Shown in pieces: positions 8,358-63,920 of a DNA stretch of 64,000 bases. Each line of letters opens with the position of its first letter. Position 1 is the stretch's first letter. Below the pieces are notes generated by a model. The model was not told where the DNA came from, searched no databases, and saw only the letters and a program-made list of their open reading frames with translations. The DNA is taken from NCBI RefSeq assembly GCF_014841105.1, contig NZ_JACYWE010000002.1, positions 220,434 to 284,433 of the forward strand, written 5' to 3'. The DNA comes from Lolliginicoccus lacisalsi (GTDB taxonomy: Bacteria; Actinomycetota; Actinomycetes; Mycobacteriales; Mycobacteriaceae). Position numbers and translations under genes: made by a program.

Positions 8358-9988
8358 GGTGTCCTTTCCTGGATGCGGGCGGTGGTGGCGGCGGTCAGCA
8401 GCTCGAATTCGCTGACGAGGACGCGCACCTCGATCTCCCAGTCGCCCGGGATCGCGAGGTCGCTGCCCTCGTAGTGGAAATCCGCAGTGCCTGCAGAGTG
8501 CTGGGCGGCGGGCCGCTCGATGTTCTCGATGCCCGATGCGGGATGGCTGAAGCGCAGGGTCACCGCGTCCAGCCCGGTCACCGGCTCGCCCTGGTCGTCG
8601 CGTATCTGCAGCTCGATGCTGTTGCTGCCTACGACGGCAGGGGTGACGGAAATGGTGGTTTCGAGGCTGTCGCTGAGCTCGAGCGTCTCGGTGTGGGGTC
8701 CGACCGTAGGCCTCGGCGGTGGCGTGGCAACCAGGGCAGCGGTGAGGGCGAGCACGATCAGCAGGCCGAGTGCTTCGATCCGCAGGGTGCGAGCGAGTTG
8801 TCGCGGTGCTGAGCTGGAGCGCCGTTGAATGCGTGGGAGCAGGCGCCACCGGTTGTAGCCGGCCACCGCGATCACGAGGACGACAACCGCAACCTTGGCG
8901 AGGAGGATCCACCCGTACCGGGTATCGAGGCTGCTCCAGTCGCGGATCTCGGCCCAGGCCATCGCGGTGCCGGACAGCGCGAGCAGCGCCACCAGGATCG
9001 CGGCGATCGTGGAGAACCGGGCCACCGTGCGCGCCTTTGACTCCACCGGCATACCGCTGCGAAGGAGGATGAGCAGTCCTATCAGGCCCCCGAGCCATAT
9101 CGCGGCGGCGACAACGTGCAGCAGGTCGGAGGCTAGGACAAGGCTTCGCGGCTGGGCTGTCACGGAGTGCCCGGCTAGCACGAAGGCACTGGTGGCGAGC
9201 GCGGCTCCAAGGAGGGGGAGCACTCCCCGGGCCGGGGCGAGGATGAGCACGAGCCCGACGATGCCGAGCAGGGCAGATGCGCCGAACGACGATCCGAGCA
9301 CCGTGGACAGGGCGTTCCAGCTGAGGCCAGGGCCGGCGACGATGATCGTGTTGACCGGCAGCGACACGAGGCTGGCGAGCAGCGCGGCCACCGCCGTGAT
9401 CCGGGTCGCGCCCACAAGCTCCCGCGCCAAGTGCTGCTGGCCAGCGGGCAGGATGAATCGTCCCAGCACAACGAGGCCCGCCGCGGCGAGGGCGCCAACG
9501 TAGATGATCCAGCGGAGCCCCAGCGCGACACCGTCCCACACGCTGCTGGCGTCGTCCGCGAGATCGGAATGGAGCACCGTGGAGGTGTCGGCCGGGTCGC
9601 CGAGCGTGAAGGTGAACGATCCGCGGATGGGGTGGGAGTCCGCGGAGACGACTCGCCAGGCCACTGTGTAGACGCCATCGGGCAGGCTGGGGCGCAGGGC
9701 CACGCGCGCATGGTCGGGGCCGGGTTCCTGGCGGATCTCACCGGTCTCGACACGCTCGGCATTGCGGTCGAGCACCCGGATCGAATCCTCGACCAGCGTG
9801 ATGGGCTCGCTGAAGCGCAGGACCACTGCGTCCGGCTGATGATCGACCCGGCTGCCGTCGCTAGGCGTGGTCTCGACGAGCGATGCGTGCGCGGATGCCG
9901 GGGGCGGGGCAACGAGGAACGCGGGAGCGACGAACGCAGCGACAAGCGCGAGCGCAAGCAGCCACGAACGTGCCCGGGCGCTGCTCAT
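8354..9988 (-). CDS. CopC-CopD fusion protein with C-terminal YtkA-like domain
   Basis: A 544-residue membrane protein. After a signal peptide ending PASA comes a CopC domain that starts with His (HASLVETTPSDGS) and holds AVVLRFSEPI and SADSHPIRGSFTFTLG. Next is a CopD domain of about eight membrane segments (roughly residues 155-430, with the LLHVVAAAIWLGGL motif). It ends with an extracytoplasmic beta domain that looks YtkA-like (residues about 440-535). Proteins of this kind bind and move copper across the membrane. The ATG at 9988 was chosen; in-frame GTG codons lie at 10000 and 10003. An ECF-type promoter (10041-10069) precedes it, identical in design to that of the neighbouring anti-sigma gene. 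Confidence 0.92.
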   Translation of the reverse strand: MSSARARSWLLALALVAAFVAPAFLVAPPPASAHASLVETTPSDGSRVDHQPDAVVLRFSEPITLVEDSIRVLDRNAERVETGEIRQEPGPDHARVALRPSLPDGVYTVAWRVVSADSHPIRGSFTFTLGDPADTSTVLHSDLADDASSVWDGVALGLRWIIYVGALAAAGLVVLGRFILPAGQQHLARELVGATRITAVAALLASLVSLPVNTIIVAGPGLSWNALSTVLGSSFGASALLGIVGLVLILAPARGVLPLLGAALATSAFVLAGHSVTAQPRSLVLASDLLHVVAAAIWLGGLIGLLILLRSGMPVESKARTVARFSTIAAILVALLALSGTAMAWAEIRDWSSLDTRYGWILLAKVAVVVLVIAVAGYNRWRLLPRIQRRSSSAPRQLARTLRIEALGLLIVLALTAALVATPPPRPTVGPHTETLELSDSLETTISVTPAVVGSNSIELQIRDDQGEPVTGLDAVTLRFSHPASGIENIERPAAQHSAGTADFHYEGSDLAIPGDWEIEVRVLVSEFELLTAATTARIQERTP

Positions 9989-45759: not shown

Positions 45760-47769
45760 CTACCGCACAGCGATCCCTAGGTCCTTCGCGGTGCGACGCA
45801 CGATATCGCGGATCTCGCCGAGGAGCTCGTTGCTGTTGCGGTCCTGCGGCTCCTCCCCCGTCGAGCCACCTGCCCTGGCAGCGGTAGCACCGGGGATGGG
45901 TGCGGCATGCTCATAGATGTCGTCCTGGATCCTGCGGGCCCGCTCGAAGGTGGAGCCCTTGCCCGCGAGCCAGTAAACGTCGAGCCACTGCGCCTCGTGA
46001 TTGTCCAGGATGCGCGTGGTGACGAGGTCGAGGAGGTCGTTGCCGAGCTCCTGCATGTACTCGTCGTAGAGGTTCTGCGCGTCGGCGCTGGTGGGTTCTC
46101 CGGCTGACCACGCGGCGGGGTGCTGAATGGCTTTGCCTAGCTCGTCGAGGAGCATCCGGTGGAGGTCCGCGATGGGGCGCAGGTGCTTGTACTCGGTCTC
46201 GGAATTCTCGGCGAGGCGTCGGCTGAGCGCTTTCACTGTCCCCCAGTGCGCCCTGTCCACGCCTTCCGCAGCCTGGATGCCCAGGAGGGCTTTCCACTGG
46301 TGGTGAAATCGGGCGATCCCATCCCGCACCGCGATGATGGCATTGGCCTCGTCATAGATCGGCCGGGTATCAGCGAGGGTGGGTCGTCCGCCACTAGACG
46401 CGAGCTGCTTGATGAGATCCTGGAGCGATTCGATGGTCTCGAAGTGCTCGTCGTCGTTGAGGGTGTTCTGGAGGCCTCCGAGATAGTAGGTGTTGTTCCG
46501 GATGCGCTCGACGAGCGGCTGCACGGCCGCCTCACCAAGATCCTGCCGGATCGCCCGCACCACTCCGAGGCAAGGGTTGACGACGTGGCGCTGGCGGTCC
46601 TCGAGGGTGGGAAGGTTCTCGCCAGCAACGTGGTCGAAGTGGGTGAAGCCGAGGAACAGCTTGCGGCCGTGACCACTGCGGACGAGCGCCTGCATGAGGG
46701 CCGCTGGCGCGGCCTGCATGGGTTGCTGCGCGTTGTCCACGAGCAGCACGGCGTCGGCTTCAGCGATCTGGCGGCTGACCTTGACAGGGATGCTCGCGGA
46801 GGAGCTCTGGACGTGGCCGAGACCCTCGGTGTCGAGCAGGATAAGGGGAATCTCGTTGCCGTCGTGCCAGGTGGGGGCGAACGGGCCGCTGACCCGCACT
46901 CCGCTGACGAGCGGGGTGAGCAGTCGTCCCCATCCGGGCTTGGCGATGCTGGTGAGGCGCTTCAGCTCGGCGATGAGCTGCTCGCGGTTGTTGGTGGCGA
47001 ACGTCCAGGAGGCGGGCCAGCCAAGCTCGGTGTGGAGCTCGCCCCGGGGGATCAGGCCGGTGCGGGAGAGCATCGCGCCAACGAGTTCGTCCGCGAGGCT
47101 GGCAAGGGCTTCGTCAGCCCGGATGGCAGCCTCGAGCTCGTCGTCCACACGCTCGCTGAGCGGGCGGTCATCGTCGTCATCGGGCTCCGCGGCGAGACGG
47201 TCGCGCAGTTCCGCTCCGATGGCCCGAGCGCGTTCGGTGGTGAGGTCGAGAACGGTCGCGATGAGGGTGTTCGTCGGGTCGAGGTCGAGCTCACCGAGCT
47301 CCGCCATGCCACGCGTGGGGCGGGCGGACCGCGAGGGGGCGAGCAAGTCGGTGGCGAGGTCGTCGGCAGCGACCTCCCGCGCGGGGCCTTCGCCGAGCGT
47401 GTACTTGAACCTGAAGCGCTGCTCGGGATGCTCGAGCAGCGCACGCTGGAGATCGGTACGGTCGTCGCCCCGGTGCGCAGCGAGCGCAGCCTCGACAATG
47501 CAGTCGCGGACCTGCTCGACGATGTACCCACGCTCGAAGAAGGTCACCACAGCCTGATAGGGACCAGGCGCCAGGATGATCTCGGTGTCAGCGATGGTGG
47601 TTCGCGCAGTGGAGGTGGTGGGGAAGCTCTCGCGCGAACTGCCGCCGATGAGCTGGCGGATGAGGGTGGATTTCCCCGATCCGGTGGTCCCAAGGAGCAG
47701 CACCTTGCGGTACTCCTCGCCCTCGGGGAAGGGAAGGATGCGGTCGCGAAGCTCGCGGGAGTTAATCAT
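45760..47769 (-). CDS. Large P-loop GTPase of unknown family in the restriction island
   Basis: 669 residues, not assigned to a named family. A P-loop GTTGSGKST lies at residues 27-35. LLDTEGLG at 311-318 looks like the G3 motif and FTHFD at 375-379 takes the place of NKxD. Between the first two lies an insert of about 275 residues rich in acidic residues, far longer than in normal GTPases. The C-terminal half is helical (LADTRPIYDEANAIIAVRDG; YKHLRPIADLHRMLLDELGK), like dynamin-like stalks. AGGAG precedes the ATG at 47769. It shares orientation with hsdMSR and begins 238 bases after hsdR, with a family B repeat between. A defence or stress role is inference. Confidence 0.65.
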   Translation of the reverse strand: MINSRELRDRILPFPEGEEYRKVLLLGTTGSGKSTLIRQLIGGSSRESFPTTSTARTTIADTEIILAPGPYQAVVTFFERGYIVEQVRDCIVEAALAAHRGDDRTDLQRALLEHPEQRFRFKYTLGEGPAREVAADDLATDLLAPSRSARPTRGMAELGELDLDPTNTLIATVLDLTTERARAIGAELRDRLAAEPDDDDDRPLSERVDDELEAAIRADEALASLADELVGAMLSRTGLIPRGELHTELGWPASWTFATNNREQLIAELKRLTSIAKPGWGRLLTPLVSGVRVSGPFAPTWHDGNEIPLILLDTEGLGHVQSSSASIPVKVSRQIAEADAVLLVDNAQQPMQAAPAALMQALVRSGHGRKLFLGFTHFDHVAGENLPTLEDRQRHVVNPCLGVVRAIRQDLGEAAVQPLVERIRNNTYYLGGLQNTLNDDEHFETIESLQDLIKQLASSGGRPTLADTRPIYDEANAIIAVRDGIARFHHQWKALLGIQAAEGVDRAHWGTVKALSRRLAENSETEYKHLRPIADLHRMLLDELGKAIQHPAAWSAGEPTSADAQNLYDEYMQELGNDLLDLVTTRILDNHEAQWLDVYWLAGKGSTFERARRIQDDIYEHAAPIPGATAARAGGSTGEEPQDRNSNELLGEIRDIVRRTAKDLGIAVR

Positions 47770-47910
47770 TGGATCTCCTAAGTTGTTTACGCGGACGAAG
47801 GGCAAGGGGGACGATTCAACCACACGATGCCGACAATTCGGATACTCGCAGGTGTAAGCGGGTGTTCAGAGGCAGATATGTGGGGGCCGCTCGGCCTGCG
47901 CCCTGCGGTT

Positions 47911-48007: not shown

Positions 48008-51000
48008 CTACCCGCCCGCCCGGGCGCTAGCGAGGCGTGGCGCCATTGTTTCCATTTGCTGCATGACAAGCTTGATAGCCTCGGGCTGCTTGTCGGGAGG
48101 GTACTTGTAGATGACGAGGAGCCGCTTGATGGAGGAGCGCAGCTTGGCGCGGACGTCCTCGCGCACGGTCCAGTCGGTGCGCACGTCTCGTTGCATGACC
48201 TTGACGAGGTCGCGGGCGATCTTGGCGAGGACGTCGGTGCCTTGGATATCGACCGCGGATTCGTTCTGGGCAACCGCGTCATAGAACGCCAGCTCGTCCT
48301 CGGTCAGCTCCGGGGTGAAGTCCTTGCCCCGATTCGCCTCGCTGGCCACTTCCTTGGCCATCTCGATCATCTCGGCGATGACCTCGGCGGCGGTGAGCTG
48401 CTGGTTGGTGTAGCGGCGCATGAGCTCGTCGATGCGGTCGGAGAAGTCGCGCTGGCGGACGATGTTGTGGCGGGTGACGTGCCGGGCTTCCTCGGCGATG
48501 CCCTTGCGCAGTGCTTCGATGGCGAGGTGGGGGTGGGAGGCGTTCTTGGTCTTGGTGATGTAGTCGGGGTTGAGGTCGTCGAGGCTCGGTCGGGGGATGC
48601 CAGCGGCGTCATAGATATCGATGACGCCGTCGGTGTCGGTGGCGGTGGCGATGAGCTCGCCGAGCTGGCGGGCGATCTCCTCGGGGATGGGCTCGCCGGC
48701 GGCGGCGCGGTCCTCGGCGTCGAACTTGGCCATCCAGACGCGCACTTCCTCGTAGAAGCGCACTTCGCGCTGCACGGCGGAGAGGTTCTGGGAGCCGCTG
48801 CAGAGTGCCCAGGCGCGGGAGAGCTGGCGGGCGAGCTGCCGGTAGCGGTCGGCCACCGTGGTCTCGTCACCTGCGGAGCTGCGCGGTTCGCGGAGCCATT
48901 CGACGGTGCCCATGACGGCGTTGGTCCAGCACTTGGGGCCTCCGTCGGCGAGGCGGGCTTTCCAGTCGTGGTCCTTGAGCAGCGCACGGAGCTGGTCGAG
49001 GAGTGTTTCGGTGAGCGCGATGGCTTCGTTGATGTCCTTGCCGACGGGCTTCTCGGCGCGGTCCTTGGCGGTGTATTCGGCGAGGGCCTTGTGCAGGTTG
49101 TCGACGAGCGGGGCGTACCCGACCATGAGGCCGTCCTGCTTGTCGCGGAAGGTGCGGTTGACGCGGGCGAGGGTCTGCATGAGCAGCGCGCCCTTGAGCG
49201 GCCGGTCGAGGTAGAGGGTGTGCAGGGGTGGGGAGTCGTAGCCGGTGAGCATCATGTCCTTGACGAGGACGATCTCGAGCTCGTCGGCGGGGTCCTTGAG
49301 GCGGGCCTTGATGGCGGCGTTCTCTCCGTCGCGGCGCACGTGGTCGGAGATGGGTGGCTCGTCGGAGGCAGTGCCGGAGTAGACGACCTTGATGCGGCCC
49401 TGGTCGAGCGCGTCGGCATGCCAGTCGGGGCGGATATCCACGATGGCGCTGTACAGGTCGGCGCAGATCTTGCGGGTGGAGCACACGATCATCGCTTTGC
49501 CATGCACTGGCCGCTCGCCAGGTTGGCTGAGGAACTTCCGCATGACGATGCGCCGGTTCTCCCAGTGCGCCACGATGTCCTCGGCGAGAGCGGCAAGCCG
49601 CTCGGGGGCACCGTAGACGGCGTTGACAACGGCGACGGACTTCTCGATGCGGTCGCGCTCGGCATCGTCGAGACCGGCGGTGGCCTCGTCGGCGGCGGTG
49701 TCGAGCTGCTCCTGGGTCACACCCTCGGCGAGGGTGACCTTGACCAGGCGGGGCTCGAAGTAGACAGGTACGGTGGCGCCGTCCTCGACAGCACGGGTGA
49801 GGTCGTAGACGTCGATGTAGTCGCCGAACACTTCGCGGGTGTCGCGCTCGGCATCGGAGATGGGGGTGCCGGTGAACGCGATGAGGGTGGCGTTGGGCAG
49901 GGCGTCCTTGAGGTGGCGGGCGTAGCCGTCGAGGTCGTCGTAGTGGCTGCGGTGGGCCTCGTCGACGATGACGATGATGTTGCGCCGATCGGAGAGCTGC
50001 GGATGCTCCTGGCCGGAATCACGCTCCTCGAGGGAACGCCCGAACTTCTGCAGGGTGGGGAAGAAGATGCCGCCGGTGGCGATGTCCTGCAACGAGGAGC
50101 GCAGCTCGGCGCGACGCTTGATCTGCTTCGGCTTCTCGGGCAGCAGCAGGCTCTGGTCGAACGCGGCGAACAACTGGCCGTCAAGCTCGTTGCGGTCGGT
50201 GATGACAACGATGGTGGGGTTAAGCAGCTGCGGATGTCTCGCCACGAGGTTCGCGTACAGCTCCATTTCCATCGACTTGCCGGATCCCTGGGTGTGCCAG
50301 ACCACACCGGCCTTGCCGTTGGAGCGGACGGCCTGCACGGTGGAACCGACAGCCTTGGTGACGGCGAAGTACTGGTGCGGCTTGGCGATTCGCTTGACCA
50401 GCCCGTCCCCACCCTGATCGAACGCGGTGAAGCTACGGAGCAGTTGCAGGAAACGTTCCTGGTTGTACAAACCATCGAGGGCCACATCGAGGCTGGTGGC
50501 GGCATCACCGGATTCGGTGAGCGCGCCCGGCTCGACGGGCTGGCCGTTGTCATCGACGTTCCACGGCGAATAGTGGTTCAGCGGCGTGAACGGGGTGCCG
50601 TACTTGGTGATGACGCCATCCGAGATGAGCGTGAACACACAGAACCGGAACACCAGCGGGAACTCACGCACATAAGTGCGGAGCTGGGCATGCGCAGACG
50701 CGACAGTGGCGTTCTCGTTGCTCGCGCGCTTCAGCTCGACAATGCTGACGGGCATGCCGTTGCAGTACAGCACCACGTCGAAACGGCGCTCATGCTCGGC
50801 GGTACGCACGGTGACCTGATTGACGACGAGCCAATCATTATCGCTCGGCTCGCTGCTGACCAGCCGGATCGTCGGATTATGCTCCTGCCCATCCGCATCG
50901 AAATACGACACCCCGCGATAGCCATCGACGAGGAACGTGTGGATGCGATGATTCTCCGCGATCGCATCCTGTGACTTCGGCGTCACCACCTCCGCCGCCG

Positions 51001-51208
51001 CCTGCTTGAGATGCTGCGCGGGCACACCCGGATTGAGTTGCTGTATCGCCGCGAGCAGGCGCGACGGGATCACCGCATCCGCCCAATCCTCCCGCTCCCC
51101 CGACCCCGGAGCTACCTCATCCGCCCCCGCCGGACGCCAATCCAATCCGCCCAGAGTATCCAGAACAGACTGCTCCCAATCAGCCTCAGACATTCCGTAG
51201 CGTGTCAT
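48008..51208 (-). CDS. hsdR: Type I restriction enzyme R subunit
   Basis: 1066 residues. The N-terminal nuclease motif is FDVVLYCNGMPVSIVELKR (PD-(D/E)xK). The motor has Walker A WHTQGSGKSMEM near 309, DEAHRSHYDDLD near 411, TGTPISDAERDTREVFGDYIDVYD, and later helicase motifs (MMLTGYDSPPLHTLYLDRPLKG; QTLARVNRTFRDK). The C-terminal part is the helical domain that binds the methylase. HsdR cuts unmethylated DNA after translocation when complexed with HsdM and HsdS. AAAGGA precedes the ATG at 51208. The gene looks intact. Confidence 0.95.
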   Translation of the reverse strand: MTRYGMSEADWEQSVLDTLGGLDWRPAGADEVAPGSGEREDWADAVIPSRLLAAIQQLNPGVPAQHLKQAAAEVVTPKSQDAIAENHRIHTFLVDGYRGVSYFDADGQEHNPTIRLVSSEPSDNDWLVVNQVTVRTAEHERRFDVVLYCNGMPVSIVELKRASNENATVASAHAQLRTYVREFPLVFRFCVFTLISDGVITKYGTPFTPLNHYSPWNVDDNGQPVEPGALTESGDAATSLDVALDGLYNQERFLQLLRSFTAFDQGGDGLVKRIAKPHQYFAVTKAVGSTVQAVRSNGKAGVVWHTQGSGKSMEMELYANLVARHPQLLNPTIVVITDRNELDGQLFAAFDQSLLLPEKPKQIKRRAELRSSLQDIATGGIFFPTLQKFGRSLEERDSGQEHPQLSDRRNIIVIVDEAHRSHYDDLDGYARHLKDALPNATLIAFTGTPISDAERDTREVFGDYIDVYDLTRAVEDGATVPVYFEPRLVKVTLAEGVTQEQLDTAADEATAGLDDAERDRIEKSVAVVNAVYGAPERLAALAEDIVAHWENRRIVMRKFLSQPGERPVHGKAMIVCSTRKICADLYSAIVDIRPDWHADALDQGRIKVVYSGTASDEPPISDHVRRDGENAAIKARLKDPADELEIVLVKDMMLTGYDSPPLHTLYLDRPLKGALLMQTLARVNRTFRDKQDGLMVGYAPLVDNLHKALAEYTAKDRAEKPVGKDINEAIALTETLLDQLRALLKDHDWKARLADGGPKCWTNAVMGTVEWLREPRSSAGDETTVADRYRQLARQLSRAWALCSGSQNLSAVQREVRFYEEVRVWMAKFDAEDRAAAGEPIPEEIARQLGELIATATDTDGVIDIYDAAGIPRPSLDDLNPDYITKTKNASHPHLAIEALRKGIAEEARHVTRHNIVRQRDFSDRIDELMRRYTNQQLTAAEVIAEMIEMAKEVASEANRGKDFTPELTEDELAFYDAVAQNESAVDIQGTDVLAKIARDLVKVMQRDVRTDWTVREDVRAKLRSSIKRLLVIYKYPPDKQPEAIKLVMQQMETMAPRLASARAGG

Positions 51209-51265
51209 CGGGATCCTTTCGGGGGGTGGGGGGCAATGAGAGCAGGAAGATCGGACGAACGGTAG

Positions 51266-52450
51266 CTAGAACAGAGTCGCAACCTCACGTTCGACATCCT
51301 TCACCCGGATACGGCCCGACATCAGGGCGGGGAGGAGGGTGTCGCGAGTGGTGGCTAGGGTTTGGTTTTCGGCACGAGCGCTTGCTGCTGCAAGACACAG
51401 TGCCGTCACTGAATCCGCCACCTCGCCTGGCAAAGCACCTGGATCGATCACGTCTGTATCCAAGAGATCCGCAGGACGGACGCGTTGGTGGCTCCCCGAC
51501 GTTCCAGCCACCTTGCCCTGGAGAGCGGTGGAAAAGTCTGGTTGCCGCAAGATCGACCACAGCACTGACGTCGTGGATGTCTCCGGCTCTAGCACCAAGA
51601 ACTCCGTAGAGGCCAGAGCGTCCGGCCCGTGACCATCGCTAATATTCCATACCCGGGGAAAACGGGGATTGAGCTTGGAAATCAGCACGCTCGGATTCTC
51701 CACCAGATACTTGGAACTCTTGATGGCGATCGGTTCCACTTCTTCAGGGGCACCATTAGCATCGAACGCGGGGAGACTGTAGTGGCGCACACGCACAACA
51801 TCGAGAGTCGTTGGATCGACCGAAAGCTTCGCATGACGAACCACAGAGCCCAAAGGAACACGTGCTCCCCCGCGACTTCCGACCAGTGCGACTGCCAACT
51901 CCTCCGCCGTCTCCGCGAGCTTCCGGTTCGCCGCGATCTTGTCGTCGAGCGCGCCAAGCACCTCAGCGATGGCTTGCTGCTCGGGGAGAGGTGGGATACT
52001 AATTAAGATTTCCTGCATCTGATCCGTGTTCAACCGCCCAGTACCATGCCCAGCCTCGTCAACCAGGCCGAGAATGTATTGAGTCTGCGACTTAATGGCA
52101 TACGCAAGATAGATTGGAGATACCACACTTTTGGCGACAAGAGCCTTGCAGTCCTGACCAAAAGCCACTTCACGCTGAGTAATTCCGACACGGAACTCCG
52201 TTTTCAGGCTCATTCCTCGGACAACAAAAATTACTGTGCCCGGGCCCACGAGCCTGGAACCATTCGCAGCGCCTAGACTTGTAAGCATCCTTTCCGAACT
52301 CTCGATTCGGAAATCTTTAAGGCTACCGGATCCAATCCAAGGTATGTTGCCGCCCCAATATTCAGGCTCACTGGTGCGCGGCGTACCCCCGGAGAGCCAG
52401 CGCGCAACGTCGCCGAGCGACATTTCTTTCCAACCTGTCAGCTCCCCCAT
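51266..52450 (-). CDS. hsdS: Type I restriction enzyme specificity subunit
   Basis: 394 residues with two target-recognition domains. The first spans about 1-150, followed by the conserved coiled region IPPLPEQQAIAEVLGALDDKIAANRKLAETAEEL. The second spans about 195-330, with the closing helix ALCLAAASARAENQTLATTRDTLLPALMSGRI. HsdS chooses the DNA target for both methylation and cutting. The ATG at 52450 is overlapped by the hsdM stop (TGATG) and has GGAGG five bases upstream. DNA of the first recognition domain is visibly lower in GC than the flanking genes, a sign of exchange. Confidence 0.93.
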   Translation of the reverse strand: MGELTGWKEMSLGDVARWLSGGTPRTSEPEYWGGNIPWIGSGSLKDFRIESSERMLTSLGAANGSRLVGPGTVIFVVRGMSLKTEFRVGITQREVAFGQDCKALVAKSVVSPIYLAYAIKSQTQYILGLVDEAGHGTGRLNTDQMQEILISIPPLPEQQAIAEVLGALDDKIAANRKLAETAEELAVALVGSRGGARVPLGSVVRHAKLSVDPTTLDVVRVRHYSLPAFDANGAPEEVEPIAIKSSKYLVENPSVLISKLNPRFPRVWNISDGHGPDALASTEFLVLEPETSTTSVLWSILRQPDFSTALQGKVAGTSGSHQRVRPADLLDTDVIDPGALPGEVADSVTALCLAAASARAENQTLATTRDTLLPALMSGRIRVKDVEREVATLF

Positions 52451-54075
52451 CAAATCCTCCCCAGCTGCTCGCGCACGACCGCCGCCAACCGCTCGGATTC
52501 CCCAAACTGCGCGAACAGTTCCTTCTTCAACCGGGCGATCTTCTCGTCGATGGGTTCGCCGTCGTCTTCGATCTCGGCGGCTCCGACGTATCGTCCGGGT
52601 GTGAGGGCGTAGTCGGCGGCTTTGATGTCGGCAATGGTGGCGGACTTACAGAAGCCAGCCACGTCTTCATACGAAAGGCCCTCGGCGACGGCGGAGTCGG
52701 ATCCGCGCCAGGCGTGGTAGGTGCTGGCGATCTTGGCGATGTCGTCGTCGGAGAGGGCGCGCTCGGCCCGGTCGATCATGTAGCCGAGGTTGCGGGCGTC
52801 GATGAACAGCACTTGGCCTGCGCGGTCGGTGGCGCCGCTGCTCTTGTTCTTGGCGAAGAACCACACGCACACGGGGATGCCGGTCGAGCGGAAGAGCTGG
52901 GTGGGCAGGGCGATCATGCAGGAGACGAGGTCGGCCTCGACGATGCGGGCACGAATGTCGCCTTCGCCGCTGCTGTTGGACGACATGGAGCCGTTGGCCA
53001 TGACGACGCCTGCGCTGCCAGCCGGCGAGAGCTTCGCGAGGATGTGCTGGATCCACGCGTAGTTGGCGTTCTTGATCGGCGGCACGCCGTAGCGCCAGCG
53101 AGGGTCGTTCTCGTTGCGCGACCAGTCCTTGATGTTGAACGGCGGGTTGGAAATCACGTAGTCGGCGACGAGGTCGGGGTGCAGGTCACGGGCGAAGGTG
53201 TCGCCCCACATCGATCCGAGGTTGCCGTTGAGCCCGTGGATGGCGAGGTTCATCTTCGCCATGCGCCAGGTGCGCTCGTTGAGCTCCTGCCCGTAGACGG
53301 AGATGTCGGAGCCCTCTTTGTTGTGCGCTTCGAGGAACTTCTCGGCCTGCACGAACATGCCACCCGATCCGCAGCAGGGGTCGTACACGCGCCCGCCGGT
53401 GGGTTCGAGGCCCTCGACGAGGACGCGCACCACGCTGGCGGGGGTGTAGAACTCGCCGCCGCGCTTGCCCTCGGCGCGAGCGAACTTCTCGAGGAAGTAT
53501 TCATACACCTCGCCGAGCAGGTCGCGGGCCTTGGAGACGCCGTGGCCGGTGAAGCGAGCGTTGTTGAACAGGTCGATGAGCTCGCCGAGGCGGCGCTGGT
53601 CGACGTTGTCGCGGTTGTAGATGCGCGGCAGTGTGCCGTCGAGCGCCTTGTTGGCGCCCATGAGTTCCGCCATGGCGGTGTCGATGATCTCGCCGATGGA
53701 CTTCGGCGGCTCCCCTGCCTCGGCGGCCTTGCCCTTGGCGTGCTTCGCGAGGTATCCCCAGCGTGCTTCGGCGGGAACCCAGAACACCCCGTGGCCGATG
53801 TATTCGTCGGCGTCGTCGATGATCGCGTCGATCTGTTCCTCATCGAGGCCGTCGGCTTCGAGCTCGGCGGTGATCTGTGCGCGCCGCTCGGTGAAGGCAT
53901 CCGAGACGTACTTGAGGAACACCAGGCCGAGGATGACGTCCTTGTACTGGGATGCGTCCATGGATCCGCGTAGCTTGTCCGCGGCCTTCCACAGGGTCTC
54001 CTTGAGCTCCTTCATCGTCGATGCCGCTGCGGGGCTGGTGGTATCGACGGTGGTGGCGCGCTTTCTCGGTGGCAC
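52450..54075 (-). CDS. hsdM: Type I restriction enzyme methylase subunit
   Basis: 541 residues. HsdM_N (LKETLWKAADKLRGSMDASQYKDVILGLVFLKYVSDAF) and the N6-adenine methylase domain with motif I VYDPCCGSGGMFVQ near 233 and catalytic NPPF (DYVISNPPFNIKDWS) near 310. Methylates adenine in the recognition site with SAM. The GTG start has GAGAGG upstream. It is the first gene of hsdMSR; the shared palindrome lies 72 bases upstream. Confidence 0.95.
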   Translation of the reverse strand: MPPRKRATTVDTTSPAAASTMKELKETLWKAADKLRGSMDASQYKDVILGLVFLKYVSDAFTERRAQITAELEADGLDEEQIDAIIDDADEYIGHGVFWVPAEARWGYLAKHAKGKAAEAGEPPKSIGEIIDTAMAELMGANKALDGTLPRIYNRDNVDQRRLGELIDLFNNARFTGHGVSKARDLLGEVYEYFLEKFARAEGKRGGEFYTPASVVRVLVEGLEPTGGRVYDPCCGSGGMFVQAEKFLEAHNKEGSDISVYGQELNERTWRMAKMNLAIHGLNGNLGSMWGDTFARDLHPDLVADYVISNPPFNIKDWSRNENDPRWRYGVPPIKNANYAWIQHILAKLSPAGSAGVVMANGSMSSNSSGEGDIRARIVEADLVSCMIALPTQLFRSTGIPVCVWFFAKNKSSGATDRAGQVLFIDARNLGYMIDRAERALSDDDIAKIASTYHAWRGSDSAVAEGLSYEDVAGFCKSATIADIKAADYALTPGRYVGAAEIEDDGEPIDEKIARLKKELFAQFGESERLAAVVREQLGRI

Positions 54076-54146: not shown

Positions 54147-54161
54147 GATAACCCGGTTATC
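54147..54161. promoter_or_regulatory. Shared 15-bp palindrome upstream of hsdM
   Basis: GATAACCCGGTTATC: 7-bp arms GATAACC/GGTTATC around one base. The same sequence (on the other strand) is at 58596-58610 before the methylase-like gene. It lies 72 bases before hsdM. Confidence 0.7.
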
Positions 54162-54198
54162 GGCGTTAACTAACTGCGAAGCGCACCACCAGACCGGA

Positions 54199-55605
54199 TC
54201 ACAGGGTGGGCGGCTCCCACACGCCGAGCTCGCGAGCTACGCGAAGGCAGAGGTGATCGTTGCCCGGTGCCGCGACGACCTGGACCCCGATCGGTAGCCC
54301 GTCGCTATTCATCCCCAGCGGTACTTGGGTCGCAGGGAGGCCGAGGAAGTTGAAGACAGTTGTGTTGGCGACGCTCCATGGGCGGAGATAGGTGCCGAAG
54401 TGCTTCGGCGCGACCCGAGGAAATGGCGGGTACAGCACAACCCCATCTCCCAAAGTTTCCGCAATATGATCAGCTGCATGGTGCGCTGCACTGATCAGCC
54501 GGCGCACGCTCTTTGTCCGCACCCATTTGACCGGTGCAGTCTCAGTCAGGTTGATCACGGCCAAGGGCGAGCTAGCGAGGTGGTGCACGAGTCGCCGCTT
54601 CCGCAACTCCGGCAGCCCCATGATCTCGGCCAACGTCGCCGCGAAATCCATCTCGCCCGCGACAGTGGCCAACGCATATCCCATAGCCCTGCGCATGCGT
54701 GGCAACTCGAGCTCAGAAACATGCGCCCCGGCACGGTCCATCTGCGCCGCGGCACGCAGTCGCGCCTGCTCGATCTCGGGGCTCGCCTTGTGCGCCGCAG
54801 AATGCACGGCAACGTACACATTGAGGCCGGTGAGCGACACATCATCGGGATTGCCAAGCGGGACATCACTCATGCCCGAGTGCGATTCGTGGGGGCCCGA
54901 GATGGCTTTCAGCGCCGCATAAAGGTCCTCGGCATGGTGAGCGATGGGCCCGAGCTGGAGCGCATCACGGATCCCGGCAGTCATCGGAAAATGGCCAGTG
55001 TTCGGTACCAGACCAGGGGTGGGAAGGTGCGCGAAAATGCCATTGAACATGGCAGGGATGCGGAGCGAACCGCCCAGATCCGACCCCAGCCCGAATGCCG
55101 CGCCGCCAATCGACACGGCAACCCCGTCGCCGCCGGACGAGCCACCGGCAGTGCGCCGGGGATCGTAGGGATTGCGGGCGATACCGTACAAGGGATTGTG
55201 CGTCTCCACCCAGAACAGCGGCCCCGCCGAGTTGGTTCCCGCGAGGACAATGGCCCCCGCTTCCTTGATCCGCGTCACGATCGGTGCGTCAGCTTCGGCG
55301 CGCAGCGTCCTCCTGTGGTGGAACCCGCCCGCGTGAGGCATACCTTCAACCGCGATCAGTTCTTTCACCGTGACCGGCACACCGAGCAACGGCGGCAGCT
55401 CCTCCGGCGAGCCCGAACTGATTCGAGCGTCTGCGGCATCGGCCTCGGCGCGCGCGTAATCGAAGCGAGGCTTGGCCAGCGCGCCGAGGCTCCGGCCGCG
55501 CTTCAACACGGCGATGTGGGCCTCCACCGCGTCGCGGGCACTGATCTGCCCAGCCTTGATCGCGGCAGCCAGTGCTACGCCAGAAATTCGCGTGGGATCG
55601 ATCAT
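54199..55605 (-). CDS. Amidase signature family hydrolase
   Basis: 468 residues with the Ser-Ser-Lys catalytic triad: Lys in PVTVKELIAVEG, the Gly/Ser-rich signature TAGGSSGGDGVAVSIGG and the nucleophile in GLGSDLGGSLRIPA. It hydrolyses an amide, but the family (amidases, GatA, FAAH) is broad. Starts at 55605, 55623 and 55641 are all possible; 55605 fits the family. It lies between the two restriction-like units on the same strand and may be a passenger. Confidence 0.87.
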   Translation of the reverse strand: MIDPTRISGVALAAAIKAGQISARDAVEAHIAVLKRGRSLGALAKPRFDYARAEADAADARISSGSPEELPPLLGVPVTVKELIAVEGMPHAGGFHHRRTLRAEADAPIVTRIKEAGAIVLAGTNSAGPLFWVETHNPLYGIARNPYDPRRTAGGSSGGDGVAVSIGGAAFGLGSDLGGSLRIPAMFNGIFAHLPTPGLVPNTGHFPMTAGIRDALQLGPIAHHAEDLYAALKAISGPHESHSGMSDVPLGNPDDVSLTGLNVYVAVHSAAHKASPEIEQARLRAAAQMDRAGAHVSELELPRMRRAMGYALATVAGEMDFAATLAEIMGLPELRKRRLVHHLASSPLAVINLTETAPVKWVRTKSVRRLISAAHHAADHIAETLGDGVVLYPPFPRVAPKHFGTYLRPWSVANTTVFNFLGLPATQVPLGMNSDGLPIGVQVVAAPGNDHLCLRVARELGVWEPPTL

Positions 55606-55699
55606 TCTTACGAACCTACGCATGCCCTTGCCGGAAGGCACGTTTTCCCGCCAGATGGCGAGGGCCAGGCGGGCGAACCTCCGTGACCAGACCCCGGTC

Positions 55700-55755
55700 G
55701 TGTGCGATTTCGCACCCTCGCGTGGCCGGATGTGGGTGCACCAGGTAACACTTCC
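55700..55755. repeat. Family B palindromic element, copy 3
   Basis: 56 bp: GTGTGCGATTTCGCACCC ... GTGGGTGCACCAGGTAACACTTCC. It sits in the divergent gap upstream of the amidase gene. Confidence 0.75.
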
Positions 55756-55876
55756 GAGGCCACAACACGGGGCACGAGCCCAGGACCCGGGGCGAGAAGC
55801 CAGGAGGCGTCAAGCGGGACGCTCGTTGCACGGCCTAGCGTTGCACCTCGCAACCCCGCTCCCGCATACTCGGCCA

Positions 55877-56497
55877 ATGGGGGAAACATTCAACGGCACG
55901 GGGGCGTGCGCCATTCCGATTCGAGCGATCGAGCGGACGCGCCTGACACGGGAAGACCGTGAGCACCGCTACAAGCGCTATCCGGATATCGCTCCGGGCT
56001 CGTACGAGCTTGTCACCAGCCTTCCTGCGGTTTGTGTGCCGCACGGGCAATCGTCATCGCGGAGCCATGAGTTCGTGGTCGAGTCCTATCCCCGGCCAAG
56101 CTTCGGGATCTGGGAGGTCCCTTTTCGCACGGTTTTTCACCGGGCGGAGCAGCGGATGCGCGGGAAGGCCTGGCTCCATGCGGATTTCGCGATGTGTGAC
56201 CGTTGCGTCGCACGCCTGCAATTCTTCTACTGGCGTGCCATCGCGTTCGTCCTGCTGGGGATTGCGGCATTGATCGCGTTCTGGATTGGTGCTGGAATGG
56301 CCGACACACCGCGGATCTTCATGCTTCCCTTGTTCGCGGGGATCCTTTTGATCTGGGGCGGGATCGTCTCCCTCCGCTCAGCGCGGGCGAAGAACCTGTT
56401 CGGGGCCGAGCTCCTCGTGGATGGATCGGCGATGGTGCTGGAGAACCCGCACCCCGCGTTTGTCGCATCTGTGCTCCAGGCCCCGGGCACTACCTAG
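55877..56497 (+). CDS. Two-span membrane protein of unknown function
   Basis: Not recognised. 206 residues: a soluble N-terminal part with His and Cys (CVPHG; MCDRCVARL near residue 110), two membrane segments (about 118-140 and 146-168) and a C-terminal domain ending VLQAPGTT. CATACT lies six bases before the ATG, so the gene is probably leaderless. Its stop codon shares the four bases CTAG with the stop of the converging methylase-like gene. Confidence 0.65.
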   Translation: MGETFNGTGACAIPIRAIERTRLTREDREHRYKRYPDIAPGSYELVTSLPAVCVPHGQSSSRSHEFVVESYPRPSFGIWEVPFRTVFHRAEQRMRGKAWLHADFAMCDRCVARLQFFYWRAIAFVLLGIAALIAFWIGAGMADTPRIFMLPLFAGILLIWGGIVSLRSARAKNLFGAELLVDGSAMVLENPHPAFVASVLQAPGTT

Positions 56498-58512
56498 TCC
56501 CCCGCGAGCGCGATGCTGCGGCGGGTCACGCCATCGTATGCGGTGTGTGCGAGCTGCGCGAGGAGGCTGAGTTGCTGCCGGAGCGCGTGCTGCTCGTTGT
56601 CGATGCGGCGCAGGTGGCGCTCTAGCTCGTCGGCCTGGTCGGGGGGCGTGTAGCGGACGGGCCAAGCGCGCACGTTCTTGGCATGAGGCGGCTGCGTGTT
56701 GATGCCGGCGGCGACGACTCCGGGCAGCAGTACTCCCCGCTGGTCGACGGGCTGTTTCGCCGCGAGGCGCAGCACGCGGGCGGGGGCCTCGACAACGCTG
56801 GTGCCCTCATAGTCCACGATTGCGGCGATGCGCGGACTCGTGGCGAAGACGATGTCACCTGGCTCGGTGTAGCGCGCGTTGGGGTACTCAAGCGCGAACC
56901 GGGCGGCGTCGATGGTGCGTTCGCCGAGCGGGCGGCGTCCAGTGAGCTCGTCGCACCCGATGATGCGCACGCCTCCGGTGGCACCGATGTGGCCGGGGTC
57001 GAGGCGGGTTCCCGGCACCGGCCGGAGGATCTTCTCGGTGATCAGCCAGCCGATGGTGGCAGTGGGCGGCCGCTGCCCCGCCGTTGCGCGCCCTACCGGG
57101 ATGTCGATCATCACCGATCGGCTGTTCTGTTCCGTGAAGGCCCGGGTGAGCGTGTTGAGGCGCTTGGCCACCTCGTCGCCGGTGATGGGATCGCGCGGCG
57201 TCGGGGCTCCGGTGTCGGTGAGGTCGCCGCGATAGGTGAGCAGCGACGGCAAGCTGACGAGTCGGCTGAAGCGGAACGCGTGGGCGTGCGCGAGGGCTGG
57301 TGCCCGCAGCCCTGCCTCGAGATCGGTCAGCAGGTATTCGAGGTCGGCCCCGTCGAAGCGCGCGTTGGCCATGTCGGCGGTCAGCACGTAGCGCTGTTCA
57401 GGGGTTGTCCCGCGAGGCGTTGGCGCGAGGATCCACAAGGTGAGGTGTTCCTGCGGGGTGGTGCGTACCCATCCCTTGGGCAGGGCGACGATGGCGCGGA
57501 CGCTGCCTGAGCGCAGCAGTCCCGATCGGATCTCGTCGCTGGGTCCGCTCAGCGGCTTTGCGAGGACGCTGGCCGGGGCCGCCACGAGCGCGACCTGGCC
57601 TTCCGTGAGTTGCAGCGCGATCTCGTCCACGGCCCGCAGCATCGCGTCGCGGTCCATCGTCGGCGCGGACGGCGCGGGCAGGTGAGCAACGACCAGCGCA
57701 TCGCCGGGGGCCTGGAACGCGCCGTCCCCGTCAACGAGCAGCGCCTGGCAGTGGATGTCATGCGCCCGCAATCGGCGTCGGGCCAGTCGGGACGCCGGGT
57801 CCTGGCGCTGCACGGTTCGCGCGGTGACGCCCGCGCCCGCCGCGGCAGCGTTGCAGGCCACCAGGAGGTCCGACCCGCCCGGCGTGGGGTCCACGACGGT
57901 GGTCGCTCCCCCGCTCGCCGCGTGCGCGACGCGTGCCAGTACCGCGGCGGCGTGGTCGGTGAGCGCCACCGCCGGATCGCGCGGCGTGGCGAGCTCGATG
58001 TGCCGCCCGATGAATCGCTCCATCGCTGCGACGGGACTGTAAGCGGCACTCGCGGCCTGGTCGGCCCATGCGGCGAGCGCGGGGGCGAGATCGTCGACGG
58101 CCGCGATCTCGCGATACAGGTAGGCATCGTCTGGATCGGCATCGTCAGCGAGATCCAGCAGTTCTTCGGTGCCTAGATCCCCGAGCTGCTCGCCCACTGC
58201 CACTTTCAGGCACAGCAACGCCGTGAGCGCCTGGAACATCACCTGATCCTCGACGCCCCCGCTTCCCGCCAGTTCCGCGAACGCGACCGCATCCTCCGGC
58301 GCTGTGGGGTTGTTGCCCCTTCCTGTGGCGCGCAGCCACTCGCTCACCTCGCGGGCGTCGAACAGCTCGCCCTGTCCCTCGGCGCGCACGGGCTGCGGGG
58401 ACGGTGTACTGCTCCCGGTGCTTCTCGTGCGCCACACCGGGACCACCGGCCGTTGCACCTGGGCGAGTGTGGCGATGCGGGATAGCGACAGGGTCGGCCT
58501 CTCGAGCGGCAC
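56494..58512 (-). CDS. HTH-fused N6-adenine methylase-like protein, probably inactive
   Basis: 672 residues. A MerR/phage-type helix-turn-helix opens the protein (SLSRIATLAQVQRPVVPVWRTR). A methylase-like domain follows: its cofactor loop reads DPTPGGSDLL (residues 208-217), close to DPxxGxG. The catalytic (N/D)PP(Y/F) is not found; the matching position reads VAHLPAPSAP near 275-284. The C-terminal half has specificity-domain features, ending in a coiled coil (ADELERHLRRIDNEQHALRQQLSLLAQLA). Such proteins might read DNA or act as regulators rather than methylate. GAGGAG precedes the GTG. The upstream palindrome is the same as at hsdM. Confidence 0.7.
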   Translation of the reverse strand: MPLERPTLSLSRIATLAQVQRPVVPVWRTRSTGSSTPSPQPVRAEGQGELFDAREVSEWLRATGRGNNPTAPEDAVAFAELAGSGGVEDQVMFQALTALLCLKVAVGEQLGDLGTEELLDLADDADPDDAYLYREIAAVDDLAPALAAWADQAASAAYSPVAAMERFIGRHIELATPRDPAVALTDHAAAVLARVAHAASGGATTVVDPTPGGSDLLVACNAAAAGAGVTARTVQRQDPASRLARRRLRAHDIHCQALLVDGDGAFQAPGDALVVAHLPAPSAPTMDRDAMLRAVDEIALQLTEGQVALVAAPASVLAKPLSGPSDEIRSGLLRSGSVRAIVALPKGWVRTTPQEHLTLWILAPTPRGTTPEQRYVLTADMANARFDGADLEYLLTDLEAGLRAPALAHAHAFRFSRLVSLPSLLTYRGDLTDTGAPTPRDPITGDEVAKRLNTLTRAFTEQNSRSVMIDIPVGRATAGQRPPTATIGWLITEKILRPVPGTRLDPGHIGATGGVRIIGCDELTGRRPLGERTIDAARFALEYPNARYTEPGDIVFATSPRIAAIVDYEGTSVVEAPARVLRLAAKQPVDQRGVLLPGVVAAGINTQPPHAKNVRAWPVRYTPPDQADELERHLRRIDNEQHALRQQLSLLAQLAHTAYDGVTRRSIALAGD

Positions 58513-58595
58513 GGCTTGGTCTCCTCGGCGGGGTCTCGATGGCGGTTCTATGCAACCAGCCTAGCCTCCACCTGAGTAAGTTACGTCCATTTGGT

Positions 58596-58610
58596 GATAA
58601 CCGGGTTATC
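58596..58610. promoter_or_regulatory. Shared 15-bp palindrome in the methylase-like/Cys-rich divergent region
   Basis: GATAACCGGGTTATC, the exact reverse complement of the site at 54147-54161. It lies 84 bases before the methylase-like gene and 68 before the small Cys-rich gene, so it could control both directions. Confidence 0.7.
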
Positions 58611-58677
58611 AGTCAGTTGATTCAGAACTGTCAGACGTATGCGTCAGTCTAGGTCGGCACCAGAAGAAGGAGTCGCC

Positions 58678-58848
58678 ATGAACCACCCTCCACCTCGACC
58701 ACCGCCCGTCTGCGGCAGCAAGGTCCGCTACCAGACCCGCGCCGATGCCCTGCGCACCATCGAGTCGCTCACCAACGCCGACGAGTACGACGCCTACTTC
58801 TGCCACCGCTGCCGCGGCCACCACCTCTCGTCGATCCACGACACCTAG
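58678..58848 (+). CDS. Small Cys/His-rich protein, 56 residues
   Basis: Residues: a Pro-rich start, KVRYQTRADALRTIESL, then YFCHRCRGHHLSS. This CxxC...HH end is a zinc-ribbon-like motif found in many tiny actinobacterial and phage proteins. AAGAAGGAG precedes the ATG. It heads a group with the RNase H-like and VWA genes. Role unknown; it may bind nucleic acid. Confidence 0.75.
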   Translation: MNHPPPRPPPVCGSKVRYQTRADALRTIESLTNADEYDAYFCHRCRGHHLSSIHDT

Positions 58849-59965: not shown

Positions 59966-60616
59966 ATGGCAAACCCCGGCACGCCCCTCATCGCCGTACT
60001 GCTCGACCGCTCCGGATCGATGGCCACGATCAAGAAGGACATGGAAGCTGGCTTCGCCGCGCTCATCGCCAAGCAGGCAGAGTTGCCCGGCACCGCCCTC
60101 GTCACCCTGTCGCAGTTCGACACCCACTACGAGGACGTCTTCCCGCCCATCCCCGCCAGCGAGGTCACCGGCCTGAACCTCCAGCCTCGCGGGCTCACCG
60201 CCCTCCTCGACGCCCTCGGCCGCTTCGTCACCGAGATCCGCGACGAGCTCCACCGCGCCGAGACCATGCACGCGGATACCGGGCCCGACAAGGTGATCGT
60301 GGTCGTGATCACCGACGGGCACGAGAACGCCAGCAACACCTGGACCGTCGAAGGCGTCCGGGACCTCGTTTCCGGGCAGCAGGACAACCACGGCTGGGAA
60401 TTCGTCTTCCTTGGCGCGAACCTCGATGCCGTCGAAGTGGGCCGCGACCTCGGCTTCCACGCCGATCGCTCGCTGACCTACAGCGCCGACCCCGACGGAG
60501 TGGAGGATGCGATGGAGTTGCTGTCCGACTACGTCGAACGGTCCCGCAGCACCCCTGGATCCCCCACCGGATTCAGCGCCGACGACCGGCGCCGCGCCAT
60601 CGGCGAACAGGACTGA
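59966..60616 (+). CDS. VWA-domain protein (MIDAS intact)
   Basis: 216 residues, cytosolic. The metal site is complete: DRSGS (14-18), the Thr in RGLTALLDALG, and the Asp in VVITDGHENAS. The start (TPLIAVLLDRSGSMATIKKDMEAGFAALI) and end (ADPDGVEDAMELLSDYVERSR) are typical of bacterial single-domain VWA proteins. VWA domains bind protein partners through a metal; the partner here is unknown but may be the RNase H-like or methylase-like protein. GAAGGAAA precedes the ATG. Confidence 0.85.
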   Translation: MANPGTPLIAVLLDRSGSMATIKKDMEAGFAALIAKQAELPGTALVTLSQFDTHYEDVFPPIPASEVTGLNLQPRGLTALLDALGRFVTEIRDELHRAETMHADTGPDKVIVVVITDGHENASNTWTVEGVRDLVSGQQDNHGWEFVFLGANLDAVEVGRDLGFHADRSLTYSADPDGVEDAMELLSDYVERSRSTPGSPTGFSADDRRRAIGEQD

Positions 60617-61325: not shown

Positions 61326-61461
61326 CCGCGCCCGCGCCCGCGGTCCCCGCGCCCGCGCCCGCGGTCCCCGCGCCCGCTTCCGGGAGCCAGCGGATGTGTG
61401 CGGTTTTGCATCCACCCCCTGAACCCACGGGCCGTCCGAGGGGGCATTCGGTAACACATGC
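61326..61461. repeat. 21-bp tandem array and family B palindromic element, copy 4
   Basis: The unit starting CCGCGCCCGCGCCCGCGG is repeated from 61326 (2.6 copies). Family B copy 4 lies at 61396-61461: GTGTGCGGTTTTGCATCC ... GGGGGCATTCGGTAACACATGCG, with a longer centre. A 9-bp array (GCGCCCGCC) follows at about 61490-61531. Confidence 0.7.
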
Positions 61462-61538
61462 GAGGTCCGGAACGGCGCGGTGCCAGACCCCGGCGCCCGC
61501 CGCGCCCGCCGCGCCCGCCGCGCCCGCCGCGCAGATGA

Positions 61539-62934: not shown

Positions 62935-63159
62935 GTGCCTCGCGAATCACACCCCACCGCCGTGCGGGAACAGCGCATCGCCGCGGGAATCACCCAGGCC
63001 GATCTTGCCCACGCGTGCGGGACGAGCCGCCAGACGATCGTGTCGATCGAGGGTGGGCAATACAGCCCGAGCGTGTGGCTGGCCCTGCGGATCGCGCGCG
63101 CCCTCCATGCCGACGTGGAATCCCTGTTCCCACTCCCCACCATCGAGGAAGCCCCATGA
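62935..63159 (+). CDS. XRE-family regulator (Cro/CI type, 74 residues)
   Basis: A small helix-turn-helix protein: VREQRIAAGITQADLAHACGTSRQTIVSIEGGQYSPSVWLALRIARAL, then DVESLFPLP. This is the common YgzD/Xre type that pairs with a membrane protein gene. GTG codons at 62933 (out of frame) and 62935 overlap; the latter is used. The stop overlaps the start of the next gene (ATGA). Confidence 0.9.
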   Translation: MPRESHPTAVREQRIAAGITQADLAHACGTSRQTIVSIEGGQYSPSVWLALRIARALHADVESLFPLPTIEEAP

Positions 63160-63798: not shown

Positions 63799-63920
63799 GT
63801 GGAAACTTTTCCCCCGTGGAGCGGGAAAAGTTTCCACCAGAGCGGACACCACCAGAGCGGACACCACCAGCGCGGACACCACCAGAGCGGACACCACCAG
63901 AGCGGACACCACCAGAGCAC
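63799..63920. repeat. Family A palindromic element, copy 5, with 15-bp tandem array
   Basis: 39-bp palindrome at 63799-63837 (GTGGAAACTTTTCCCCC ... GGGAAAAGTTTCCAC), then five or more 15-bp units ACCACCAGAGCGGAC, one with a single change. The gap 63636-63949 holds no gene. Confidence 0.8.

What the first reader, a model, noticed from the sequence alone, without database searches (positions are those of the whole stretch)
54147..58610. The same 15-bp palindrome controls hsdMSR and a methylase-like/RNase H/VWA island
GATAACC-C-GGTTATC upstream of hsdM and its exact reverse complement in the divergent region of the methylase-like gene. Two identical 15-bp palindromes 4.4 kb apart, both 68-84 bases from start codons, are very unlikely by chance. 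It points to a single regulator, perhaps the HTH of the methylase-like protein, linking classic restriction with a second unit (inactive methylase, Cys-rich peptide, RNase H-like, VWA). This could be a two-layer defence system.
Basis: partly seen in the sequence, partly recalled or inferred. Interest (0 to 1): 0.8.

Follow-up and report, generated by a model that had tools for sequence, protein, structure and literature searches.

The report
Dead methylase switches restriction operon
In this actinobacterium and many relatives, the first gene of a classic phage-restriction operon encodes a dead DNA methylase fused to a DNA-binding domain, and a conserved palindrome in front of it, present again in front of the restriction genes where the operon has been split, is very probably the site through which it controls the system.

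Summary
The palindrome is real. GATAACCCGGTTATC occurs exactly twice in the 3.45 Mb genome, before hsdM and before the methylase-like gene ("ML"), and the sister species has both. ML is not a second defence unit. In about 45 relatives it is the first gene of a four-gene operon, ML-hsdM-hsdS-hsdR; in this genus an insertion split that operon. ML is a winged HTH (excisionase/MerR type) fused to a catalytically dead HsdM-like domain and one HsdS-like target-recognition domain. The same operator, GATAAS-N4-STTATC, lies 75-180 bp upstream of ML's HTH in nearly all relatives. It changed to GTTAAG-N4-CTTAAC at least twice, each time with the same change in ML's recognition helix (RPVV to RPAV.QW). 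In an unrelated split operon (L096), hsdM again carries its own operator. A -10-like TAGNNT starts 32-34 bp after the operator, or one helical turn further, with no -35 consensus. That is activator geometry. Four held-out plasmid loci fit. The "two-layer" guess is only partly right: an RNase H-like or Cys-rich gene is often divergent from ML, whereas the VWA gene is local. Binding, activation and any signal are untested experimentally.

The parts
54147..54161 (-). Operator copy 2 (GATAACCGGGTTATC on the hsdM strand), before hsdM
   Evidence: conserved in L005
54108..54113 (-). -10-like hexamer TAGGGT of hsdM, 33 bp after the operator
   Evidence: inferred promoter element
58596..58610 (-). Operator copy 1, in the divergent region between ML and the Cys-rich/RNase H/VWA genes
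   Evidence: homologous position filled in nearly all relatives
58558..58563 (-). -10-like hexamer TAGGCT of ML, 32 bp after the operator
   Evidence: inferred promoter element
56494..58512 (-). ML: winged HTH + degenerate HsdM-like domain + HsdS-like TRD/helix; proposed regulator
52450..54075 (-). hsdM, N6-adenine methyltransferase, intact
   Evidence: Pfam N6_Mtase 1e-111, HsdM_N
51266..52453 (-). hsdS, specificity subunit
   Evidence: Pfam Methylase_S
48008..51208 (-). hsdR, restriction/translocase subunit
   Evidence: Pfam HSDR_N, SWI2_SNF2, T1RH-like_C
54199..55641 (-). Amidase gene lying between ML and hsdM (insertion that separates the two; present in both Lolliginicoccus species)
   Evidence: Pfam Amidase; not found in the other ML-hsdM operons
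58679..58848 (+). Cys-rich small protein, divergent; similar peptides divergent from ML in L078, L079, L080, L090, L091, L096, L102
58910..59902 (+). RNase H-like protein, divergent; D-E-D of the active site conserved
   Evidence: Pfam RNase_H 4.5e-10; alignment; divergent from ML in 23 of 55 loci
59966..60616 (+). VWA-domain protein, end of the divergent cluster; beside ML only in Lolliginicoccus
   Evidence: weak Pfam VWA_2

Best explanation
ML is the dedicated transcription regulator of this type I restriction-modification system. It arose from an HTH-methylase-TRD protein that lost catalysis. It binds, probably as a dimer with one winged HTH per half-site, the palindrome GATAAC-N3/4-GTTATC centred near -53, upstream of a -10-only promoter, and recruits RNA polymerase: positive autoregulation of ML and activation of hsdMSR. 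Normally one operator serves the single ML-hsdM-hsdS-hsdR operon. In Lolliginicoccus the amidase-bearing insertion cut hsdMSR off, and a second operator-promoter before hsdM keeps it in the regulon. The same operator lies in the leader of the divergent Cys-rich/RNase H/VWA genes, which bound ML would repress or co-control. Shown by sequence comparison: operon order, operator conservation, HTH-operator covariation, second operator after splitting, fixed spacing to the -10-like hexamer. Inferred: binding, dimer, activation rather than repression, effect on the divergent genes, and the idea that the dead methylase/TRD part senses HsdM/HsdS, SAM or target methylation so that restriction starts only after establishment.
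For: Two sites only in the genome. Across 784 kb of ML loci, 37 of 45 perfect sites lie 10-200 bp before the ML HTH codon, and 3 of the other 8 lie before hsdM. With mismatches allowed, 53 of 55 loci have an operator-like site there. The operator half-site changed GATAA to GTTAA at least twice on the tree, each time with RPVV to RPAV and Q before the Trp. L096: ML and hsdM are separated by an opposite-strand gene and hsdM has its own GATAAGGCTCCTTATC and TAGTCT. In L080 a co-directional gene fills the gap and no second site is found. A TANNNT starts 32-34 bp after the operator in 40 of 50, against a shuffled maximum of 8; five of the rest have it at 44-45; no -35 consensus. Five of five plasmid loci fit, four of them not used before. 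The HTH model matches excisionase/BldC/MerR folds. The body matches HsdM structures and the C-terminus matches HsdS.
Against: No binding or expression data. Activation is read from geometry only: operator centre near -53 assumes that the TAGNNT is the -10. In L006/L008 an alternative TAAGGT with a weak -35 lies 5 bp nearer. The AlphaFold models are weak (pLDDT 56 and 63). L102 has an 857-nt ML-to-HsdM-motif gap without a second site. No operator was recognised in two distant members (L104, L105). GATAAC versus GATAAG is not fully explained by the HTH.
Confidence: 0.72

Rival explanations
1. ML binds the palindrome but represses: it blocks its own operon, hsdMSR and the divergent genes until phage infection or loss of an effector releases it, as RptR or BrxR do.
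For: Known regulators of defence operons such as RptR (PMC12255303) and BrxR (PMC9122589) act as negative regulators. The operator sits close to the divergent genes' starts.
Against: For ML-hsdMSR the operator is upstream of the inferred core promoter, at fixed distance or one helical turn more, and no -35 consensus is seen.
Confidence: 0.22
2. A different regulator, for example the XRE-type protein at 62935-63159 or a chromosomal factor, binds the palindrome.
For: An HTH_3 protein lies 4 kb away.
Against: Only ML is always adjacent to the operator, on chromosomes and plasmids of several genera, and ML's own helix changes with the operator.
Confidence: 0.05
3. ML is mainly a structural subunit of the restriction complex (an accessory specificity or methylase-like subunit), and its HTH only targets it to a site.
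For: HsdM-like and HsdS-like domains and operon position.
Against: Motif IV NPPF is absent in all ML members and motif I is eroded; the operator-promoter spacing is constrained.
Confidence: 0.12
4. Two-layer defence: ML/Cys-rich/RNase H/VWA is a second effector unit coupled to restriction by one regulator.
For: The shared operator lies between the two arms; RNase H-like or Cys-rich genes recur divergently.
Against: ML belongs to the hsd operon; the divergent gene varies (RNase H-like, Cys-rich, a ~470-aa family, others) and RNase H-like genes occur alone.
Confidence: 0.12
5. Chance, a terminator hairpin or a duplication scar.
For: Two of the background exact matches lie just 3' of an unrelated gene.
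Against: Genome-wide uniqueness, conservation in many genera, no long shared flanks.
Confidence: 0.01

Closest known systems
Dual-function methylase regulators of type II systems (M.Ecl18kI, M.SsoII, M.EcoRII; reviewed in PMC12707154)
   Same: HTH fused to a DNA methylase that acts at a site in its own promoter region
   Different: Those are active methylases of type II systems and repress; ML is a dead N6-type HsdM/HsdS-like fusion serving a type I operon, with activator-like geometry
Controller (C) proteins of type II systems, and the C-like gene of Mycoplasma gallisepticum hsd (PMC12707154)
   Same: Autogenous regulator gene in the R-M operon; operator upstream of the promoter
   Different: C proteins are small XRE-type proteins (own knowledge); ML is ~670 aa with a MerR/excisionase-type wHTH
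RptR, repressor of type I systems in gammaproteobacteria (PMC12255303)
   Same: First gene of a type I defence operon with a conserved palindromic site
   Different: RptR is a 9-kDa all-helical single-domain repressor of TAGCTA repeats overlapping the -10
BrxR/CapW WYL regulators (PMC9122589, PMC9122601)
   Same: Regulator genes at the head of defence loci
   Different: Different fold; no WYL match was found in ML
MAD1 of MADS; PADLOC MTase_I model PDLC03037
   Same: ML's HTH weakly matches the 60-aa mad1 model; the N-terminus of L101/L077 ML aligns with the start of PDLC03037, a methylase model with a similar N-terminal HTH
   Different: No MADS gene set here; ML is catalytically dead

Membership tests
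Type I R-M operon (hsdMSR) | Intact HsdM, HsdS, HsdR genes together | tested here: met
   same set beside ML in relatives
Active HsdM / N6 methylase (for ML) | Motif IV (N/D)PPY/F | tested here: not met
   absent in all 53 aligned members, including the window
Active HsdM / N6 methylase (for ML) | Relation to the HsdM fold | tested here: met
   only PDB profile hits are HsdM (E 0.005-0.045); Foldseek top hits are N6 methylases, from a low-confidence model
HsdS (for ML C-terminus) | TRD followed by conserved helix | tested here: met
   hhalign P 89.5%, E 2e-6 over 158 columns
HsdS (for ML C-terminus) | Two TRDs | tested here: not met
   one TRD-helix unit aligned
MerR/excisionase winged HTH | wHTH fold (helix-turn-helix plus two-strand wing) | tested here: met
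   (best Z 5.4, weak); excisionase 8c3t, named AlpA family, is also the sole sequence hit, E 0.89
MerR-type activator | Operator between -35 and -10 | tested here: not met
   operator ends 32-34 bp before the -10-like hexamer
Type II dual-function methylase regulators | HTH fused to methylase domain | tested here: met
Type II dual-function methylase regulators | Catalytically active methylase | tested here: not met
C proteins | Small XRE-type HTH protein | tested here: not met
   no HTH_3 match in ML and 672 aa long; other fold
RptR | TAGCTA repeats over the -10; 9-kDa protein | tested here: not met
   operator is GATAAS-N3/4-STTATC; ML is 672 aa
MADS | Set of mad genes (mad1-mad8) | tested here: not met
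   window neighbours match type I R-M models best
Dedicated operator-binding regulator | Direct binding to the palindrome | not testable with these tools
   needs EMSA/footprint; covariation is indirect support

The most novel reading that the evidence does not exclude
ML is a restriction enzyme turned sensor-switch: its dead HsdM/HsdS-like body still pairs with HsdM/HsdS, or reads SAM or the methylation of its own target, and passes that state to the winged HTH. The operon, carried on chromosomes and conjugative plasmids, would then fire fully only once the new host is protected. This would be a methylation-gated positive feedback controller for type I restriction.
Probability: 0.3. Interest if true: 0.85.

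Novelty: new variant of a known kind. Interest (0 to 1): 0.7.

Why it matters
A 2025 review notes surprisingly little information on transcriptional control of type I restriction (PMC12707154). Here is a candidate dedicated regulator, found in 53 of 401 sampled genomes of the family and on plasmids. Its operator, promoter spacing and recognition-helix code can be read off the sequence and tested at once. It has no named Pfam, NCBIfam or PADLOC model of its own. How type I systems enter unmethylated hosts safely is an old question that this makes testable in actinobacteria.

Tried and rejected
Chance: rejected by genome-wide counts. Segmental duplication of a promoter: flanks of the two sites are not alike. 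Exact 15-mer as a family-wide regulon: only Lolliginicoccus has the N3 form; the three other exact matches are not near hsd. Pfam and NCBIfam gave no model for the window ML. N4 sites in this genome: none. Divergent promoter: no fixed -10-like spacing found on that side. Full-length AlphaFold with five sequences was too weak to quote as a structure. The MADS paper is not in the library. A family scan of the divergent ~470-aa protein failed on my coordinates and was not repeated. Searches of the held library found no paper on this regulator; subscription papers and preprints were not searchable.
Full report
OBSERVATION. The palindrome GATAACCCGGTTATC is at 54147-54161 and, inverted, at 58596-58610. 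These are the only two sites in the 3.45 Mb genome, and one mismatch in GATAACNNNGTTATC adds none. The family background is three unrelated exact matches in 400 genomes, which predicts 0.005 per genome of this size. The sister species Lolliginicoccus suaedae has both sites in the same places, one with a single changed base.

GENES. hsdR, hsdS and hsdM (48008-54075) are an ordinary intact type I system. The methylase-like gene ML (56494-58512) has no Pfam, NCBIfam or PADLOC match. It was found in 53 of 401 family genomes with a five-sequence profile, in 4 of 396 across the phylum including this genome, and on five plasmids. One weak partial hit among phages was not followed.

ML IS PART OF THE HSD OPERON. 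Of 55 ML loci, 51 have hsdM downstream on the same strand; two of the other four run into contig ends and two are weak, distant hits. In 45 of 48 measured loci the HsdM N-terminal motif begins 20-219 nt after the ML stop. hsdS, and where the sequence reaches it usually hsdR, follow. Annotated plasmids show the same order, with ML called a hypothetical protein. In this window an amidase and other sequence separate ML from hsdM; this is the derived state, shared by the sister species. The 'two units' of the finding are therefore one operon that was split.

WHAT ML IS. N-terminal about 65 residues: a winged HTH of the excisionase/BldC/MerR type. The sole PDB sequence hit (E 0.89) and the best structural match (Z 5.4) are the same excisionase, 8c3t, followed by BldC; these are weak but agree. 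It also resembles the 60-aa mad1 model. Centre: HsdM-like. The only PDB profile hits are HsdM proteins, the Foldseek list is headed by N6 methylases although the model is poor, and the profile alignment with HsdM is colinear but weak. Motif IV NPPF is absent in all members and motif I is eroded. C-terminus: one HsdS-like TRD and helix. So ML is a dead HTH-M-S fusion. L100, from another Lolliginicoccus, carries DPACG and CEPPF, and L105 carries DPACG and CEPPL; these may show the active ancestor type.

OPERATOR. Upstream of ML, GATAAS-N4-STTATC is present in most loci with an intact core. With mismatches 53 of 55 loci have an operator-like site, usually 75-180 bp before the conserved HTH; the two exceptions are the distant L104 and L105. 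Of 45 perfect sites in 784 kb, 37 are in the 10-200 bp window and three more precede hsdM. The scoring matrix was trained on these same windows, so the regex counts and the held-out plasmids are the cleaner test: all five plasmid loci have the site (two with a single G for A in one half) and the -10-like hexamer at 32-33 bp. One of them, L119, is the plasmid already seen as L101, so four are new. Only Lolliginicoccus uses a 3-bp spacer, at both of its sites.

COVARIATION. On a maximum-likelihood tree the GTTAAG operator needs at least two origins: a five-member clade and L098. Both times the helix reads RPAV(S/T)QW instead of RPVV(S/T)xW. L099 (RPAVNEW) has an nTTAAG half-site. L098 and L099 are long branches, so their exact place is less sure, but L098 lies outside the five-member clade by well-supported branches. 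Members with RAVV keep GATAA. This ties the operator to ML's own HTH.

SPLIT OPERONS. In L096, ML and hsdM are separated by an opposite-strand gene and hsdM has its own GATAAGGCTCCTTATC and TAGTCT, as in Lolliginicoccus: an independent parallel. In L080 a co-directional gene fills the gap and no second site occurs. L102 is similar but leaves about 400 nt unexplained.

PROMOTER. A TANNNT, mostly TAGNNT, starts 32-34 bp after the operator in 40 of 50 loci; shuffles never exceed 8. Five of the others have TAGATT at 44-45 bp, one helical turn further. Both window sites, both L005 sites and the L096 hsdM site obey the rule. No -35 consensus stands out. If the hexamer is the -10, the operator is centred near -53 (or -64). 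That is activator geometry. On the divergent side no such spacing exists, and the operator lies in the leader of the divergent genes.

DIVERGENT GENES. RNase H-like genes are divergent in 23 of 55 loci, with the D-E-D residues conserved; the fourth acidic position is His in the window. Cys-rich zinc-ribbon-like peptides are divergent in at least seven others; a ~470-aa family of unknown function in seven. RNase H-like genes also occur alone: four family genomes with strong matches but no ML, and paralogues in this genome, have no operator nearby. So the divergent genes are exchangeable accessories, not a fixed second unit.

COMPARISON. Type II dual methylase regulators, C proteins and RptR share parts of the design. 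None is a dead HsdM/HsdS-like fusion with a MerR/excisionase-type HTH in a type I operon. The held library shows no description of it, which does not exclude one elsewhere.

LIMITS. All evidence is comparative. Binding, direction of control, effector and phage phenotype are untested. Genome samples were drawn by the tool, and several clades contain close relatives.

Noticed in passing
51266-52453 versus L005:16694-17911: hsdS is only about 30% identical to that of the sister species while hsdM is 96% identical: the specificity gene has been exchanged.
   Followed up: partly
45760-47823 (-): A 687-aa GTPase/dynamin-like P-loop protein lies next to hsdR; possible accessory defence gene.
   Followed up: no
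58632-58647: A second, short and imperfect inverted repeat (CTGACGCATACGTCTG on the - strand) sits in the leader of the Cys-rich/RNase H/VWA genes and is conserved in L005; possible site of another regulator.
   Followed up: no
G000 C14:203023-203937 and C24:72728-73615 (L114, L115): Paralogues of the RNase H-like protein elsewhere in the genome; strong matches also in the other Lolliginicoccus species.
   Followed up: partly
L100:6399-8423 with 8720-9457: Another Lolliginicoccus has an HTH-N6 methylase-TRD gene with near-intact motifs (DPACG, CEPPF), divergent from a VWA gene related to the one in the window.
   Followed up: partly
L082, L085, L087, L092, L094, L095, L097, upstream of ML: A ~470-aa protein family (REAQRWTTGERG motif) is divergent from ML in these loci; function unknown.
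   Followed up: no
63834-63918: 15-bp tandem repeat, 5.7 copies.
   Followed up: no
61326-61377 and 61493-61532: Perfect GC-rich tandem repeats of 21 and 9 bp.
   Followed up: no
L118:8054-9660: On plasmid pHiyo8-1 hsdM is annotated in three pieces, so this ML locus may be decayed or mis-sequenced.
   Followed up: no
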